IMG/VR virus record: IMGVR_UViG_3300041405_000025
Coordinates: 1-25,576 of that record
DNA length: 25,576 nt
Strand: one strand, 5' to 3'
DNA from: a virus
Made by a program: the position numbers and the translations under genes. This document shows, piece by piece, positions 9,341-22,494 of the stretch. Numbering within the stretch: the first letter of the stretch is position 1; every line of letters begins with the position of its first letter. The notes beneath the pieces were generated by a model, which searched no databases, was not told where the DNA came from, and was given only the letters and a program-made list of their open reading frames with translations.

Positions 9341-9676
9341 TTACTTCTGATTCTTCACACGAGCTTTCGCCAAAGCACGACGCAGGTGCTTACGGAACTT
9401 GGCTTTGTGAATGTACATGCTATCACCGATCCGTTGGAAGATCTGTGGGCAAGTATCATGTAGCTTGAAGATTACACCAGGTACCGAGATCCAGTGACAA
9501 CCACGAGCAGCTGGGTAAAGCTGATCGATTTTATCAGAGACTAGGTCCAAGAAGGCATCATTACGATAACCTACATAGACCGCGTAATACTCTTTACCTT
9601 TACGGTTGTAATACTTTAGTTGACGACCAGTTTCTACGTCAGCTGCAACACGTTCAGCGTATGGACTATACATCAT
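9341..9676 (-). CDS. Hypothetical basic phage protein, 111 aa
   Basis: The start is ATGATG at 9676/9673, overlapping the end of the 469-aa gene by 11 bases, with GAGG just upstream. The product (MMYSPYAERVAADVETGRQL...) has an aromatic strand-like region (KYYNRKGKEYYAVYVGYRND) and a very basic C-terminus (HKAKFRKHLRRALAKARVKN), suggesting contact with nucleic acid or another acidic partner. No family is recognised. Its coupling to the 469-aa protein suggests related roles. Confidence 0.75.
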   Translation of the reverse strand: MMYSPYAERVAADVETGRQLKYYNRKGKEYYAVYVGYRNDAFLDLVSDKIDQLYPAARGCHWISVPGVIFKLHDTCPQIFQRIGDSMYIHKAKFRKHLRRALAKARVKNQK

Positions 9677-11075
9677 TCAGCCTCGACACATTAAGACGTT
9701 CAAAGAGATCGACGCGATAACGATCGTGATCGATATACTCGCCGGTGTGATAATTGCGGCATACCCATGCACCTTGCAGGGCATTGCCTTGTGGACTAAC
9801 ACCATACTCCCGCGTGATGACATGGAAGTCATCTTCACGTTCGAAGTGGTAGCCTTCCAATTCTACCTTACGTGGATTGGTAAGCTTCGGTTCGATAGGC
9901 TCAAACCCAGCCAGCATCAAAGCACTATCTGCCAACAATGCGCTATCGGCAGGCTCATCGCCCATGGCGTTGGATTCCAGGCTGACTTCCACATCGCCGA
10001 GTTGACGAATAGGGGCTTCGCGTGAAAGCAGATCCAGGGTGCCACCATCGTAATGAGAGATATGACTACGCAGTTCAGCCAATGCCTCAGTGACTGCTTT
10101 GGTGTGATCAGTAGCTTTATCGAACTCAGGAGCCTTTTGCATCAAAGCCTGAGAAAAAAGATTCGTGGATCGACGTAGAAGTTTTTGCTCCATACGCTCT
10201 TTCATGAGTACGGTCCATACTACACGCTGGATACGAGCGACCGGACTATCCGATTGATCTTTCTTGAACTCGACTACAACTTCATCACGGGTAAAGGTAG
10301 GATTAGCTACCAGTTCACCTATGATGCGTTCAGCGACCTCAGTGATCTCTTCGGTCGAAGTCGTATCGAATGGATTCAACTTCAGTAGTTCAGATGTGAC
10401 CACCAACTTCACGAAGTGCAGATCGTTTCCACGCTCCGGGGCTAGTTTCATTGGCTGGGTTGAATTCGTATAGTGGTTCTTGTAGACTGTGGCGCATGCA
10501 ACCGCTGGATCGGTAATGCCTTGATGGATCAAGCTGAGTACAATGTTGGAGATATCAGGGTAGCGCAACTCGATATCGTTCAAACGGTACATGGCCTGAA
10601 TTGCTTTACCCATCGGTTCCATGATTTCACGCGATGGATGTTCCATAGCGCGCAACGCGGGCATTTGAAACAGTTGACGTAGTCCTGTATTCATCATGTT
10701 GTAACCTTGTGGTTGAAATTCCGGCCAGCCAGTTGTGTCGAAATCTGGATTTTTACCAGAAGCGATTTGAGCTGCGATGGAATCCATGAATATCCCGAAT
10801 GAACGGGTACGGTTTTCCCCGCTCAGAGTCATAGTCAGTTTCAGATAACGATCTATCAAATCGGCGCCCTCTGGCGTACTAACACCGAGGCACAGATCAT
10901 GACAGTTCTTACGGATTTGATGGAAGCTTGCAACCACTACATGCGAGGGTTCGAAATCGCGTGCGTGTGCAGACTTATCATCCAGCTTTGGGATCAAACC
11001 TTGAACACGGAACAGATCCATGATGCGGTCAATGATCATCTGATCAAAACCACCATTTGCTTTGGTATTGAACAC
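9666..11075 (-). CDS. Large unrecognised phage protein, 469 aa
   Basis: The start is the GTG at 11075, preceded by AAGGACTAAAGCT. It is by far the largest gene of the accessory block. The first ~300 residues are helical (FDQMIIDRIMDLFRVQGLIP..., IQAMYRLNDIELRYPDISNI), followed by a charged linker and a C-terminal section that looks beta-rich (VELEGYHFEREDDFHVITRE; AWVCRNYHTGEYIDHDRYRV). One SLE (365-367, in VEVSLESN) resembles a prohead-protease site; whether the protein enters the head is unknown. No catalytic motif is recognised. It could be structural or a host-interaction factor. Confidence 0.75.
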   Translation of the reverse strand: MFNTKANGGFDQMIIDRIMDLFRVQGLIPKLDDKSAHARDFEPSHVVVASFHQIRKNCHDLCLGVSTPEGADLIDRYLKLTMTLSGENRTRSFGIFMDSIAAQIASGKNPDFDTTGWPEFQPQGYNMMNTGLRQLFQMPALRAMEHPSREIMEPMGKAIQAMYRLNDIELRYPDISNIVLSLIHQGITDPAVACATVYKNHYTNSTQPMKLAPERGNDLHFVKLVVTSELLKLNPFDTTSTEEITEVAERIIGELVANPTFTRDEVVVEFKKDQSDSPVARIQRVVWTVLMKERMEQKLLRRSTNLFSQALMQKAPEFDKATDHTKAVTEALAELRSHISHYDGGTLDLLSREAPIRQLGDVEVSLESNAMGDEPADSALLADSALMLAGFEPIEPKLTNPRKVELEGYHFEREDDFHVITREYGVSPQGNALQGAWVCRNYHTGEYIDHDRYRVDLFERLNVSRLNDV

Positions 11076-13159: not shown

Positions 13160-13188
13160 CGGCATAAAGCCACTCCCGAGGGAATGGC
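13160..13188 (-). terminator. Hairpin terminator after the macrodomain gene
   Basis: On the - strand a 9-bp stem (GCCATTCCC / GGGAGTGGC, one G-T pair) is followed by TTTATGCCG. The same TTTATGCCG tail follows other hairpins in the window. Confidence 0.7.
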
Positions 13189-13195
13189 CTTTGGA

Positions 13196-13690
13196 TTAAT
13201 CCCATTTGTCATCTTGTTCCATCCAAGGTGGATAAACTACCACGATTGGATTAGGCATGTGTGAAGCGAATAGCTTAATGGTGTCTTTAACGTCGCTAAA
13301 GTTTAGACCACCATTAGCACAGCCTAGGGGTGGGATTACGATACGCCATGACGGCTCGATATCCCCTTCTTCATTGTCGACTGATGTTACTGAGTCGACC
13401 ATCCACTGTAACCCAGCGGATATGTATTCTGCTAGCGATGGATCTTGCCAGCGGTCCTTCGTAGGAAACATCATGTAGCGTTTCCCATTTTCAGCTTGAT
13501 AGATTACCGGATTACCGATTGTAATAATCTTCATCCGGCAATCATGGCGATAACGTTCGTATAGGTCGGGATGGGCTTCTTTGAACGACTTCGCTAGCCC
13601 TTTTCCCATCACTCCAACGCAATTAACTGTGATAAGATACAGATCACCTTCCTGTCGGAAGATGTCGGTACCGATTACGAATTCAACCAT
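13196..13690 (-). CDS. Macrodomain protein, DarG/TARG-like ADP-ribose hydrolase
   Basis: The start is the ATG at 13690 (MVEFVIGTDI) with the ribosome site GGAGACCTATC; an upstream ATG (13726) lacks one. The 164-residue product is a complete stand-alone macrodomain. The first loop, VNCVGVMGKGLAKSF (residues 22-36), closely matches that of DarG-type antitoxins, including the lysine at 30. The second, IPPLGCANGGL (119-129), matches the phosphate-binding loop. Family role: binding ADP-ribose and removing it from DNA or protein. No DarT toxin or DarG C-terminal domain is present. In a phage such a protein could reverse DNA ADP-ribosylation by host DarTG defence, or act on NAD metabolites; this is inference. 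N130 lies where DarG proteins I recall have Asp. Confidence 0.85.
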   Translation of the reverse strand: MVEFVIGTDIFRQEGDLYLITVNCVGVMGKGLAKSFKEAHPDLYERYRHDCRMKIITIGNPVIYQAENGKRYMMFPTKDRWQDPSLAEYISAGLQWMVDSVTSVDNEEGDIEPSWRIVIPPLGCANGGLNFSDVKDTIKLFASHMPNPIVVVYPPWMEQDDKWD

Positions 13691-13749
13691 GATAGGTCTC
13701 CATTTAGATGTGTGTAAATCATTCATCTAATTGGGCAACCTGTATTACT

Positions 13750-14525: not shown

Positions 14526-15905
14526 TTAGAGCGGTGGTGCGGTATCTGTCTCAACATGACGCACTAGGAACAAGTCCAGCGTGGCAATGCCATCATACTT
14601 AGATACGTTGTTACCTGGGTCAGTAGGGATACGGTTATCGTTTACACCCAATAACGTGCCATAGTAGGTTTTGACTGTATCACCATCTAAAGTCTGGTAC
14701 CGTACAGGCATTCCCGGCTCTAGTAGATCAACATTACTACGGAACCATTGCACCTTCAGCGGTTGTCCCCGTTTCTGGGCCATTGTGGTGTAATGCTTGT
14801 ATGGGTTAGAACTAAAACGCTCAGTAGCCCAGCGTACGTTGTTGATCCCTTCAGCCAAAGCCTCACCTGCCACCTCAAACAAATTGGTAGCTCGGTCTAA
14901 CAACATGCGGTTGCCTTTAACCGTACCCTGTGCCAACAGTTTCGCGGCGTCACCAAAACGTAAGCCATTCCCCTCTTGGATTTTCAAACCAGTAGATTGA
15001 TCGTCCGAGGTGTTCTTACCGGTGGCGATAATAGTGATCGACTTCGGTGTGACTAGGAATGTTTTCTCTGAACCTTGGAAGCGTTCATTGGGCATGTTGA
15101 TGATATTCAGCACACGTGCATTCTTCTGATAACGGGTAACGTCAAACAAAGGATACACGTAAAACTGATTATCTTGGATATATCGACCAAGACCTGTTGG
15201 GTATACCCCCACCTCATCGTTCTGTAGAAACTTAGGTACGTCCTTTAAAAGGATACCATCAGGGAAGGCGATCTGATGTTGAATATCCGGGTTAGCATTA
15301 TCACGCCAGACATTCATCCCTTCGATTCGTTTATTAGAACCTGCAAAGAGTTTGTCGAAATAGTAAGTGTGAATCCACACCAACATATCTAACGTAGTCA
15401 TCTGCCTTAAGGTTGTCCCCACGGTAGTCATCATCAGTTTATAACAGGCTTCATCAACCAGCGTAAATACTACAGACTTCATACCCATTTGATTCATCTG
15501 GGCTTTGGTGGTCATTGCAGGCGACTTGTTAGTGAGTGTGGTATTATCACCTCCTTTCAAGTCGAGAATAGCTTTATACCGTTTTGTCCCTGCACGTCGT
15601 TCCCAGTTACGAGAACTGGTACCTTCCATCAGAGGGATTTCAGTTATGTCAATGTACATGTTGTCACGATATGGCAACACGTCGTAGGTATAATCCCCGA
15701 GTGACATCAGACATTCAATTTGTCGAACATCACCTAATGCGCCAGTACTGTAGTCTCGGGCTAGGTGAATGTAATCGAAGCGTGTGGGTTTAATCCATTG
15801 ATTATTCACACGGATGTTAATAGTTGTTCGTACGTTGTAATAACCTTCGCCTTCAGTCGTAACACGCTCTGCGGCTTTATTCAAAAGTGTAGCATCATAG
15901 GACAT
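14526..15905 (-). CDS. Probable virion structural protein, 459 aa
   Basis: The ATG at 15905 overlaps the previous stop (TAATG) with the ribosome site GGAGCTTTACTA. The product (MSYDATLLNKAAERVTTEGE...) is strand-rich, with many aromatic/Asn/Gly turns (YRDNMYIDITEIPLMEG; QDNQFYVYPLFDVTRYQKNA) and a C-terminal barrel-like section (PGMPVRYQTLDGDTVKTYYG), the look of a tail or baseplate structural protein. No catalytic motif is visible. Together with its operon partners it resembles conserved virion genes of phiKZ-group phages, but I cannot assign a specific homolog. Confidence 0.7.
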   Translation of the reverse strand: MSYDATLLNKAAERVTTEGEGYYNVRTTINIRVNNQWIKPTRFDYIHLARDYSTGALGDVRQIECLMSLGDYTYDVLPYRDNMYIDITEIPLMEGTSSRNWERRAGTKRYKAILDLKGGDNTTLTNKSPAMTTKAQMNQMGMKSVVFTLVDEACYKLMMTTVGTTLRQMTTLDMLVWIHTYYFDKLFAGSNKRIEGMNVWRDNANPDIQHQIAFPDGILLKDVPKFLQNDEVGVYPTGLGRYIQDNQFYVYPLFDVTRYQKNARVLNIINMPNERFQGSEKTFLVTPKSITIIATGKNTSDDQSTGLKIQEGNGLRFGDAAKLLAQGTVKGNRMLLDRATNLFEVAGEALAEGINNVRWATERFSSNPYKHYTTMAQKRGQPLKVQWFRSNVDLLEPGMPVRYQTLDGDTVKTYYGTLLGVNDNRIPTDPGNNVSKYDGIATLDLFLVRHVETDTAPPL

Positions 15906-19659: not shown

Positions 19660-22494
19660 TTACTTCGACGCTTTCTTCGCAACACCACACAGGGCATCTG
19701 CAACTTCAACGCAGTGTTTAGTGATGAACTTGTAAAGATCCACGTGAGACTGAGCCAACAGCTTCATTGCGGTAGCTGCTGCATCAACGCCGGACTCATC
19801 CCCTTTCACACGGCTATATGCACTAATAGGCAATGCACGAGTACGAGTAGTACGAATCTTGGTAGCCAAGCTAACAGCACGATCACCGGTAGTGTTCGCC
19901 AGCTTACGAGCAATGCCAACGTAAGTCTTAGCCATCTTCAGCAGGTTAGCGATATCACCCTTGGACAGAGTGTACGAGGTGTTCTCGCCAGCCTTAGCAG
20001 CTTTAACGCCAACCGGAATACCAGTGTGACCCAACGCTTCAATCTTCTCGGCACGATCACTACCGGAACCCTCACGGATCTCCAGTTTGTAACCACCGAG
20101 CAGACCTTTATCGAAAGCAGCATTAGGGAAGCTAGCCTTGATGTTCTTCAGGGCCGCCAAGCCATCGAGTGCTTTACCGATTTCATCTTCCGAACCGGCA
20201 GAGATAATATCGTTAACCCCTTTAACTACAGTCGACTGAAGTTGTTCAGAAGCCTTGATACCTTTAACAGCGATATCGGTAGTAATACCAAGATCGGATG
20301 CTACAGCTTTGACAAGGTTGGTTTCATCGGTAGCCAAATAACCACGAACACCAGTTACTTCACCAGTAGTAAAGCTCGAGTCTTTCAGTTGGATCAGACA
20401 CAGGTCAATTTGTTTATCCAATGCATCGGCACGAGAAGTCACTTTATCAACCAGAGCACGGGACCACCAGTTCTCGATCTTCTGTGGTAGTTGACTACCC
20501 AACATGGTCAGACGAGAGATCATGCCACGGAAGGATTCCAGAGTAGCAACGTAGGCCAGATCCATGTCCTTACCGCCGTAAGATTCCAGCGATACTTTAG
20601 CAGGGGTCTTAGTGCCGACAATGCTGTCCAGTTTAGCCAAACGTTTACGCAGCGGTTCAGCCTCAGCGTTCATGTAAGCCAACAGACCAGGAGAGTACGA
20701 TTCGTTAGCGATACCATCTTCCAACAGTACGCGGAACTTCTCGAGGGACTCTTTCTCTTTCTGGAGTTCTTCGATGGTCTTATCGGCTAGCTCAGCGTCC
20801 TTCTCTTCTTTGTCGCCCCACTCACCAACTTCAGCGGCGTCAGCCATAGCTTCTTCTACGTCTTCATCGGTAGTGCTAGTGTCAACATCCTTAACCTCAA
20901 CTTCGCCTTTATCGAAGTCAGCTTCGGTTTCATCGTCATCGGCTACTTCAACCTGACCACCATCAACATCTGCATCAGCTGGTTCGTCAACAGCAACTTC
21001 TACATCGCTGGTATCGGATACGTCTGCATCTACAGGTGGAGCTTCATCGACTACATCACCAGCTACGTCAGTGGTACCTTCACCGGTTTCATCGCCAGAA
21101 GTGCCTTCAGCCAAAGGTTGTTCGTCTTCAACTACACCATCTGTGGTAGTCCCCGAATCTTCCTCAACTTCCGCGGTAGCATCAGCTACTGCATCTACGC
21201 CGTCTTGGAGATCTTCAGCGGTGTCTTCGGTAATGGATTCTTCTACGGTAGCAGCGGTACCATCTGAATCGCCCATGTCACCGCCAGCAGCGGTCAGATC
21301 TTCTTCAGCATTAACGCCAAGGTCTTCGGCACCTTCCAAAGGAATATCATCGTCTTCTGCGACTGCATCATCGGTTTGTTCAGTGTCGGTAGTTTCAGTA
21401 ACTGCGTCATCACCATCAACCACTTCAGCATACTTGTTTACTTCTGGACCTTCATCCTCAGTAACTTCTGCGGTAGTGTCGTCAGTAGTAACTGCATCAC
21501 CTTCAGCTGCACCGCCGTCACCGGCTTCTTCAGTAACCGCATCTGTCGCATCACCGGTAGTTTCATCGGTAACTTCAGCAGCTGCGTTCTGATCATCGAC
21601 TTGGGTGTCTACGTCAGTATCAGTACTACCTTCTTCAGTAACTGCCGAATCGTCTGTACCAGTTTCTTCGGTTCCGTCACCAGCATCACCAAGGTCTTCA
21701 CCAGTAGTCTCGCCGTCAGTAACATCCCCACCAGTATCACTATCAGTAGTATCGTCGGTCCCATCAGTTTCCCCACCTTCAGCAAAGTCATCTGCACCTT
21801 CGAGAGGTGTGTCGTCATCTAAGCCTGCATCGTCAGTAGACGTATCGCTACCAAATGCATCACCGCCATCAGTGGATTCACCACCATCGGTATCGGTTTG
21901 GGTGGCATCATTGATTGCATCACCGAGTTCCTCGTCAGCGCCTTCTTCTGCTTCCGCAGCTTCTTGATGAATATTCTTGGCTTCGGCTTCTTCCTCAACC
22001 TCGTCTTCTACCTCATCTTCGGCAGCATCTTCTTCAGCATTGATCGCGGCTTGTTCTTCAGTAACGGCATTACCGTTAGCATCCAATTCACCACCACCTT
22101 CTGCGGCATCACCACCAGTTGCTTCTGCGGTAGCTTGTTGAACGATCTCATCTTTGGCGGATTGTGCTTGTTCGCCTTCTTGCAGGAGTTCAGTCATCTC
22201 AGAAGCAACTTCTGGAGCAACCTGAGCATTACCGGTGCCTTCCAGCTGAGCGTCATCAGTAGATTCAGTCTGAGTGATGTCTGCTTTATCGTCAGGAGTG
22301 ATTTCATCCTTAGGGGTAGATTGACCAATGTCATCACCGGCTTCGGTTACGTCAGCTTCTGGTGTTACGGGCGCAGTTACTTCTTCAGCATCTGCATGAG
22401 AGATTGCGCCTTGCTCACTGAGTTCTTTTGCAGTCTCTTCGGTGTGATCCTCTTTCCCATAAGAAAAGAGATTTCTTGAATTCTTTTTCAACAT
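19660..22494 (-). CDS. Internal head protein with giant acidic propeptide, 944 aa
   Basis: The ATG at 22494 follows AAGGTAAACAAC. After a short basic start (MLKKNSRNLFSYGKED), residues ~15-545 are low complexity and made almost only of D, E, T, A, G and V, with imperfect repeats of PLEGA(D/E)D. Then comes a coiled-coil-like segment (ELADKTIEELQKEKESLEKF) with the ELQ..L..LE..YSPGLLAYM pattern shared with the pro-region of the 453-aa gene. A prohead-protease-type site, SLE (635-637, VSLESYGG), follows. The remaining ~307 residues are helical and end YKFITKHCVEVADAL, similar to YIVRYIKGHCVAIDAQ in the 453-aa paralog. Inferred: the acidic part scaffolds the prohead core and is destroyed on maturation. 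Confidence 0.85.
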   Translation of the reverse strand: MLKKNSRNLFSYGKEDHTEETAKELSEQGAISHADAEEVTAPVTPEADVTEAGDDIGQSTPKDEITPDDKADITQTESTDDAQLEGTGNAQVAPEVASEMTELLQEGEQAQSAKDEIVQQATAEATGGDAAEGGGELDANGNAVTEEQAAINAEEDAAEDEVEDEVEEEAEAKNIHQEAAEAEEGADEELGDAINDATQTDTDGGESTDGGDAFGSDTSTDDAGLDDDTPLEGADDFAEGGETDGTDDTTDSDTGGDVTDGETTGEDLGDAGDGTEETGTDDSAVTEEGSTDTDVDTQVDDQNAAAEVTDETTGDATDAVTEEAGDGGAAEGDAVTTDDTTAEVTEDEGPEVNKYAEVVDGDDAVTETTDTEQTDDAVAEDDDIPLEGAEDLGVNAEEDLTAAGGDMGDSDGTAATVEESITEDTAEDLQDGVDAVADATAEVEEDSGTTTDGVVEDEQPLAEGTSGDETGEGTTDVAGDVVDEAPPVDADVSDTSDVEVAVDEPADADVDGGQVEVADDDETEADFDKGEVEVKDVDTSTTDEDVEEAMADAAEVGEWGDKEEKDAELADKTIEELQKEKESLEKFRVLLEDGIANESYSPGLLAYMNAEAEPLRKRLAKLDSIVGTKTPAKVSLESYGGKDMDLAYVATLESFRGMISRLTMLGSQLPQKIENWWSRALVDKVTSRADALDKQIDLCLIQLKDSSFTTGEVTGVRGYLATDETNLVKAVASDLGITTDIAVKGIKASEQLQSTVVKGVNDIISAGSEDEIGKALDGLAALKNIKASFPNAAFDKGLLGGYKLEIREGSGSDRAEKIEALGHTGIPVGVKAAKAGENTSYTLSKGDIANLLKMAKTYVGIARKLANTTGDRAVSLATKIRTTRTRALPISAYSRVKGDESGVDAAATAMKLLAQSHVDLYKFITKHCVEVADALCGVAKKASK

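What the first reader, a model, noticed from the sequence alone, without database searches (positions are those of the whole stretch)
13196..13690. Stand-alone DarG/TARG-like macrodomain in a phage accessory block, without DarT
The loops VNCVGVMGKGLA and IPPLGCANGGL are those of macrodomains that remove ADP-ribose from DNA or protein. In bacteria DarG neutralises the DNA-ADP-ribosylating toxin DarT, and DarTG is a known anti-phage defence. Here the domain stands alone with its own terminator among small, early-looking genes. This suggests a phage-encoded counter to ADP-ribosylation defence, a route different from the NADAR-type anti-DarT protein known in a T4-like phage. The Asn at position 130, where DarG proteins I recall have Asp, may change specificity.
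Basis: partly seen in the sequence, partly recalled or inferred. Interest (0 to 1): 0.65.

Follow-up and report, generated by a model that had tools for sequence, protein, structure and literature searches.

The report
Jumbo-phage ADP-ribose-removing macrodomain (phiKZ gp104)
The gene is real, but it is the already catalogued macrodomain protein (phiKZ gp104) carried by phiKZ-type giant phages; its enzyme core resembles the bacterial antitoxin that strips ADP-ribose off DNA, yet nobody has shown what it acts on.

Summary
The ORF is real: 164 aa, minus strand, 13196-13690, under strong purifying selection. It is the ortholog of phiKZ gp104, PhiPA3 gp108 and 201phi2-1 gp167, a published family with one copy in each of 15 phiKZ-type records. 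By profile, sequence and fold it is a DarG-class macrodomain (best PDB hits: M. tuberculosis and Thermus DarG, then DarTG, then TARG1), with the catalytic-type lysine intact. It lacks the C-terminal half of DarG, and no relative examined carries DarT, so "stand-alone, DarG/TARG-like, no DarT" is confirmed.

The Asn at 130 is not a signature: close orthologs have D, S, N or H, and true DarGs D, P, S or N. The neighbourhood is late virion genes, not early ones. The 3' hairpin lacks a U-tract and abuts a TATG late-promoter motif.

DarT countering stays possible and untested. Published work shows gp104 is imported into the phage nucleus and that knockdown lowers ChmA without changing PFU; DarTG is rare in P. 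aeruginosa (1 of 100 strains). The most likely role is an ADP-ribosyl hydrolase guarding the phage nucleus against host ADP-ribosylation.

One new side observation: a conserved hairpin in the gene's 5' leader.

The parts
13196..13690 (-). macrodomain gene, ortholog of phiKZ gp104 (164 aa, including stop codon)
13457..13459 (-). codon of Lys78 in FPTK, aligned with the lysine of the same motif in DarG and TARG1; invariant in 41/41 aligned sequences
   Evidence: codon coordinates computed from the start at 13690
   Evidence: codon coordinates computed from the start at 13690
13700..13734 (-). 5' leader hairpin built on CAATTAGATGA, conserved upstream of the gene in phiKZ-type relatives
13166..13191 (-). 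3' hairpin directly after the stop codon, terminator-like but without a U-tract
13160..13168 (-). TTTATGCCG after the hairpin; contains TATG, the published core of phiKZ late promoters; 5 copies in the window against 0.6 expected
14526..15905 (-). neighbouring late gene, corresponds by position to phiKZ gp101 / 201phi2-1 gp164 (virion protein)

Best explanation
This is the phiKZ gp104 ortholog of a phiKZ/201phi2-1-type jumbo phage: a single DarG-class macrodomain that most likely hydrolyses ADP-ribose off a macromolecule. By analogy with phiKZ gp104 it should be imported into the phage nucleus. There it would keep phage DNA or nuclear proteins free of ADP-ribose added by host enzymes, with DarT-type DNA ADP-ribosylation as one candidate. 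Shown here: family, fold class, retained motif residues, absence of the C-terminal half of DarG, absence of DarT. Shown by others for phiKZ gp104: nuclear import, lower ChmA on knockdown. Inferred: catalysis, substrate, counter-defence role.
For: Best profile is DarG (NF048014 E 1.9e-39; PADLOC DarG E 5.2e-39). Solved-structure hits are M. tuberculosis DarG, Thermus DarG, 7omu (Thermosipho DarTG), then a gap to TARG1. AlphaFold model pLDDT 90.7, and Foldseek ranks the same DarG structures 1-4 and TARG1 5-9. All six plasmid relatives examined lie just downstream of DarT/DUF4433. Lys78 and the GxG loop are invariant, and Asn23 is present in every sequence that covers it. dN/dS 0.04-0.14. phiKZ gp104 is imported into the phage nucleus, and a selection against its import yielded only target-site escapes (PMC11087766). 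ASO knockdown lowers ChmA; the authors predict a benefit in hosts with other defences (PMC12571901). No NADAR or KptA found in 13 records.
Against: No enzymatic or infection test of any gp104-family member against ADP-ribosylation was found. DarTG is rare in P. aeruginosa (1 of 100, PMC10855318), whereas the gene is constant in its phages. The phage macrodomains are acidic (net -4 to -8, pI about 5), whereas Thermus DarG and several plasmid DarGs are neutral to basic, which does not favour a DNA substrate. The clade has a long stem and weak placement beside DarG. A survey of viral proteomes argues that phage macro domains mostly act on small ADP-ribose derivatives (PMC9503650).
Confidence: 0.5

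Rival explanations
1. It degrades small ADP-ribose-derived signals or toxins of NAD-based immune systems (for example Thoeris-type messengers) rather than cleaning DNA or protein.
For: A survey of viral proteomes argues this is the main role of phage macro domains (PMC9503650); a jumbo-phage overview says the same (PMC7824862). The gene is constant in the phages, as expected for a general function.
Against: The domain is nearest to DarG, which acts on DNA, and not to Poa1p- or MacroD-like classes. phiKZ gp104 is concentrated in the phage nucleus, an odd place to destroy a diffusible cytoplasmic signal.
Confidence: 0.2
2. Specific counter to DarT: it removes ADP-ribose from thymidine of phage DNA made by host DarTG. 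This is the narrow form of the best explanation.
For: DarG-class fold and retained lysine; plasmid relatives sit with DarT; nuclear localisation of phiKZ gp104. Other phages carry anti-DarT factors by other means (AdfA; AdfB of ICP1, PMC11481870).
Against: DarTG in 1 of 100 P. aeruginosa strains; acidic protein; no C-terminal half of DarG, so sequestration of DarT is unlikely.
Confidence: 0.2
3. Catalytically idle ADP-ribose reader, or housekeeping removal of ADP-ribose by-products, tied to phage nucleus biology rather than defence.
For: Knockdown lowers ChmA in an ordinary host without changing PFU (PMC12571901), so it does something in PAO1 without a known ADP-ribosylating challenge.
Against: Lys78 and the ligand loops are invariant; KptA, the usual source of ADP-ribose-1''-phosphate in RNA repair, was not found.
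Confidence: 0.1

Closest known systems
phiKZ gp104 / PhiPA3 gp108 / 201phi2-1 gp167
   Same: Orthologs: 64-81% identical over the full length, same position next to the gp97-gp101 virion genes, single copy.
   Different: Only sequence divergence; this contig's copy is 90% identical to its nearest metagenomic relative and has a slightly longer acidic loop near residue 105.
DarG antitoxin (macrodomain of DarTG; PDB 5m3i, 5m31)
   Same: Fold, ADP-ribose loops, catalytic-type lysine in FPTK; 32-34% identity, TM 0.77-0.80.
   Different: No C-terminal domain (match covers 7-152 of the 338-position model), no DarT partner, score 136 against a cut-off of 250.
TARG1 / OARD1
   Same: Same broad macrodomain class, lysine aligned.
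   Different: About 18% identity; TARG1's motif Asp (GCGLDRL) aligns with Gly127 here.
Anti-DarT factors AdfA (NADAR, T4-like) and AdfB (ICP1 gp145)
   Same: Phage-encoded proteins proposed or shown to blunt DarTG (PMC11481870; the NADAR nature of AdfA is from general knowledge).
   Different: Different proteins; no NADAR gene found in these phages; no anti-DarT activity shown for gp104.

Membership tests
phiKZ gp104 orthologous group | Full-length homology, single copy and conserved gene order | tested here: met
   clade support 100/99
Macro domain (PF01661) | Score above the curated cut-off | tested here: met
   28.1 bits against 22
DarG antitoxin | DarG-class macrodomain with the FPTK lysine | tested here: met
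DarG antitoxin | C-terminal half (about positions 153-338) and score above the equivalog cut-off | tested here: not met
   135.9 bits against 250; match ends at 152 of 338
DarG antitoxin | Gene paired with darT | tested here: not met
   PF14487 in 0 of 15 records; 6 of 6 plasmid relatives examined do have it
DarG antitoxin | Removes ADP-ribose from DNA thymidine | not testable with these tools
   Needs an enzyme assay
TARG1 | Lys plus motif Asp of GCGLD | tested here: not met
   Lys met, Asp column is Gly127
Anti-DarT counter-defence factor | Rescues DarT toxicity or phage growth on DarTG hosts | not testable with these tools
   No published test found for gp104

The most novel reading that the evidence does not exclude
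A nucleus-imported DarG-class eraser that keeps jumbo-phage DNA free of ADP-ribose inside the phage nucleus, meaning that host ADP-ribosylation can reach or precede that shielded compartment. Its production would be controlled by a dedicated leader hairpin found essentially once per genome.
Probability: 0.15. Interest if true: 0.7.

Novelty: new member of a known kind. Interest (0 to 1): 0.32.

Why it matters
gp104 is one of the best-studied cargo proteins of phage-nucleus import, yet its biochemical role is listed as unknown. Placing it in the DarG class gives a concrete, testable substrate (ADP-ribosylated DNA) and a reason for it to be inside the nucleus. That would link ADP-ribosylation defence with the shielded compartment of jumbo phages.

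Tried and rejected
DNA-level search for near relatives in the phage collection found nothing. Two scans of bacterial genomes with short patterns found no relative; this shows only that the phage-specific patterns are absent, since plasmid tblastn finds DarGs. The Alt/exotoxin ART family search rang nowhere, including in the controls, so it says nothing about phage-encoded ARTs. Rfam gave no meaningful match for the 5' or 3' hairpins. Asn130 as a specificity switch was rejected on alignment. A formal covariation count on the leader was not made, because MAFFT shifts the 3' arms around a bulge. Derivation of the phage clade from within DarG is not resolved by the tree: long stem, weak deep nodes. 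The core-genome paper of the phage family does not mention the gene.

Full report
Observation. The ORF at 13196-13690 on the minus strand encodes 164 aa from the start conserved in relatives (MVEF; an upstream in-frame ATG at 13726 is not conserved). Both quoted loops are present. Pfam Macro scores 28.1 bits over a cut-off of 22, PHROG 335 'phosphatase' 7e-36, the NCBI DarG model 1.9e-39 and PADLOC DarG 5.2e-39. dN/dS against relatives with measurable dS is 0.04-0.14; dS is above 1, so these are rough. This is a real, selected gene.

What it is. tblastn finds it in 259 phage records, best in 201phi2-1 (79%), Phabio (70%) and phiKZ (65%). In 201phi2-1 and phiKZ the genes before it are the inner head and virion genes gp95-gp101, and the window has the same order. 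It is therefore the gp104 ortholog of a phiKZ/201phi2-1-type jumbo phage. The window is a 25.6 kb virus record on its own. Macro occurs exactly once in each of 15 related records, while DarT is found in 0 of 15, NADAR in 0 of 13 and KptA in 0 of 13. Two of these records, the window and L004's, are clearly fragments.

Class of the domain. Sequence and profile searches of solved structures give M. tuberculosis DarG, Thermus DarG and the Thermosipho DarTG chain, then nothing convincing until TARG1 at E 0.2. The AlphaFold model (pLDDT 90.7) gives the same order by fold: DarG at ranks 1-3, DarTG at 4, TARG1 at 5-9, Poa1p later. Six plasmid relatives were examined and all six lie directly downstream of a DarT/DUF4433 gene (in the Mycobacterium plasmid that gene is annotated as a 126-base fragment). 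Lys78, in the same motif as the DarG and TARG1 lysine, is invariant in 41 sequences. The match to the DarG model stops at position 152 of 338, so the C-terminal half is missing and the score is far below the equivalog cut-off. It is built on the DarG plan but is not a DarG antitoxin. The tree joins all phiKZ-type proteins with 100/99 support on a long stem, and its join to DarG is weakly supported.

Residue 130. Across close orthologs it is N, S, D (phiKZ) or H, and among DarGs D, P, S or N. It carries no evident specificity signal.

Context and expression. The upstream neighbours are late virion genes. A hairpin directly follows the stop codon and hairpins in the same place follow most orthologs. 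It has no U-tract and is followed by TTTATGCCG. That 9-mer family occurs five times in the window against 0.6 expected, and TATG is the reported phiKZ late-promoter core (PMC10612078). The hairpin may separate this gene from a late promoter of the next one; this is inference. Nothing here marks the gene as early.

What is published. phiKZ gp104 is described as a macrodomain protein of unknown function that is imported into the phage nucleus through a surface including residues 77-95 and the PicA pathway; PhiPA3 gp108 is a homolog that phiKZ does not import (PMC11087766). Antisense knockdown lowers ChmA without changing CFU or PFU, and the authors expect such genes to matter in competitive conditions or in hosts with other defences (PMC12571901). 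The Goslar copy is annotated as phiKZ ORF104-like. Comparative surveys propose phage macro domains mainly as erasers of small ADP-ribose derivatives (PMC9503650, PMC7824862). DarTG was found in 1 of 100 P. aeruginosa strains (PMC10855318). No test of gp104 against DarT was found in the held library; subscription papers and preprints are not held.

Mechanism. Most likely it is an ADP-ribosyl hydrolase acting inside the phage nucleus. Class, fold, motif residues and single-copy conservation are shown here; import and the knockdown effect are shown by others for phiKZ; catalysis, substrate and the defence link are inferred. For a DNA substrate: DarG class and nuclear location. Against: acidic charge, rarity of DarTG in hosts, and the survey arguments for small-molecule substrates.

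Side finding. The leader of the gene carries CAATCTAATGAG (phiKZ, PhiPA3, Psa21 and others) or CAATTAGATGAG (201phi2-1 type). An exact motif lies at this gene in 10 of 12 records searched; the window and Phabio differ by one base there. The only other exact matches to the pooled pattern are three CAATTTGATGAG sites elsewhere, one each in the L005, PA7-type and Phabio records. In each of 11 leaders tested the motif forms the 5' arm of a hairpin 40-70 nt before the start codon. Shuffling the rest of the leader matches the energy in under 3% of trials for 10 of 11, and the inner stem changes sequence yet stays paired between phages. The leaders are related, so these are not independent tests. In L005 a GIY-YIG endonuclease ORF begins at this very motif and runs in frame into the macrodomain. 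The role of the element is unknown.

Noticed in passing
window 13700-13734 (-); leaders of L003, L004, L006, L007, L008, L013, L014, L016-L022: Conserved 5' leader hairpin upstream of the macrodomain gene, with an almost single-copy sequence motif (CAATCTAATGAG or CAATTAGATGAG) and a stem that changes sequence but stays paired. No Rfam match.
   Followed up: partly
L005:5230-6480 (IMGVR_UViG_3300034358_000008): A GIY-YIG / I-TevI-like homing endonuclease ORF starts at the leader motif and reads in frame into the macrodomain as one 416-aa open frame.
   Followed up: partly
window 1230, 1273, 4293, 13160, 19623: TTTATGNCG occurs five times against 0.6 expected; contains TATG, the published phiKZ late-promoter core. 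At 13160 it directly follows a hairpin.
   Followed up: partly
window 19660-22494 (-): 944-aa virion structural protein with a long, highly acidic low-complexity N-terminal half (PHROG 27483, corresponds to phiKZ gp97 by position).
   Followed up: no
window 9666-11075 (-): 469-aa protein with only its C-terminal 50 residues matching phage families of unknown function; no Pfam domain.
   Followed up: no
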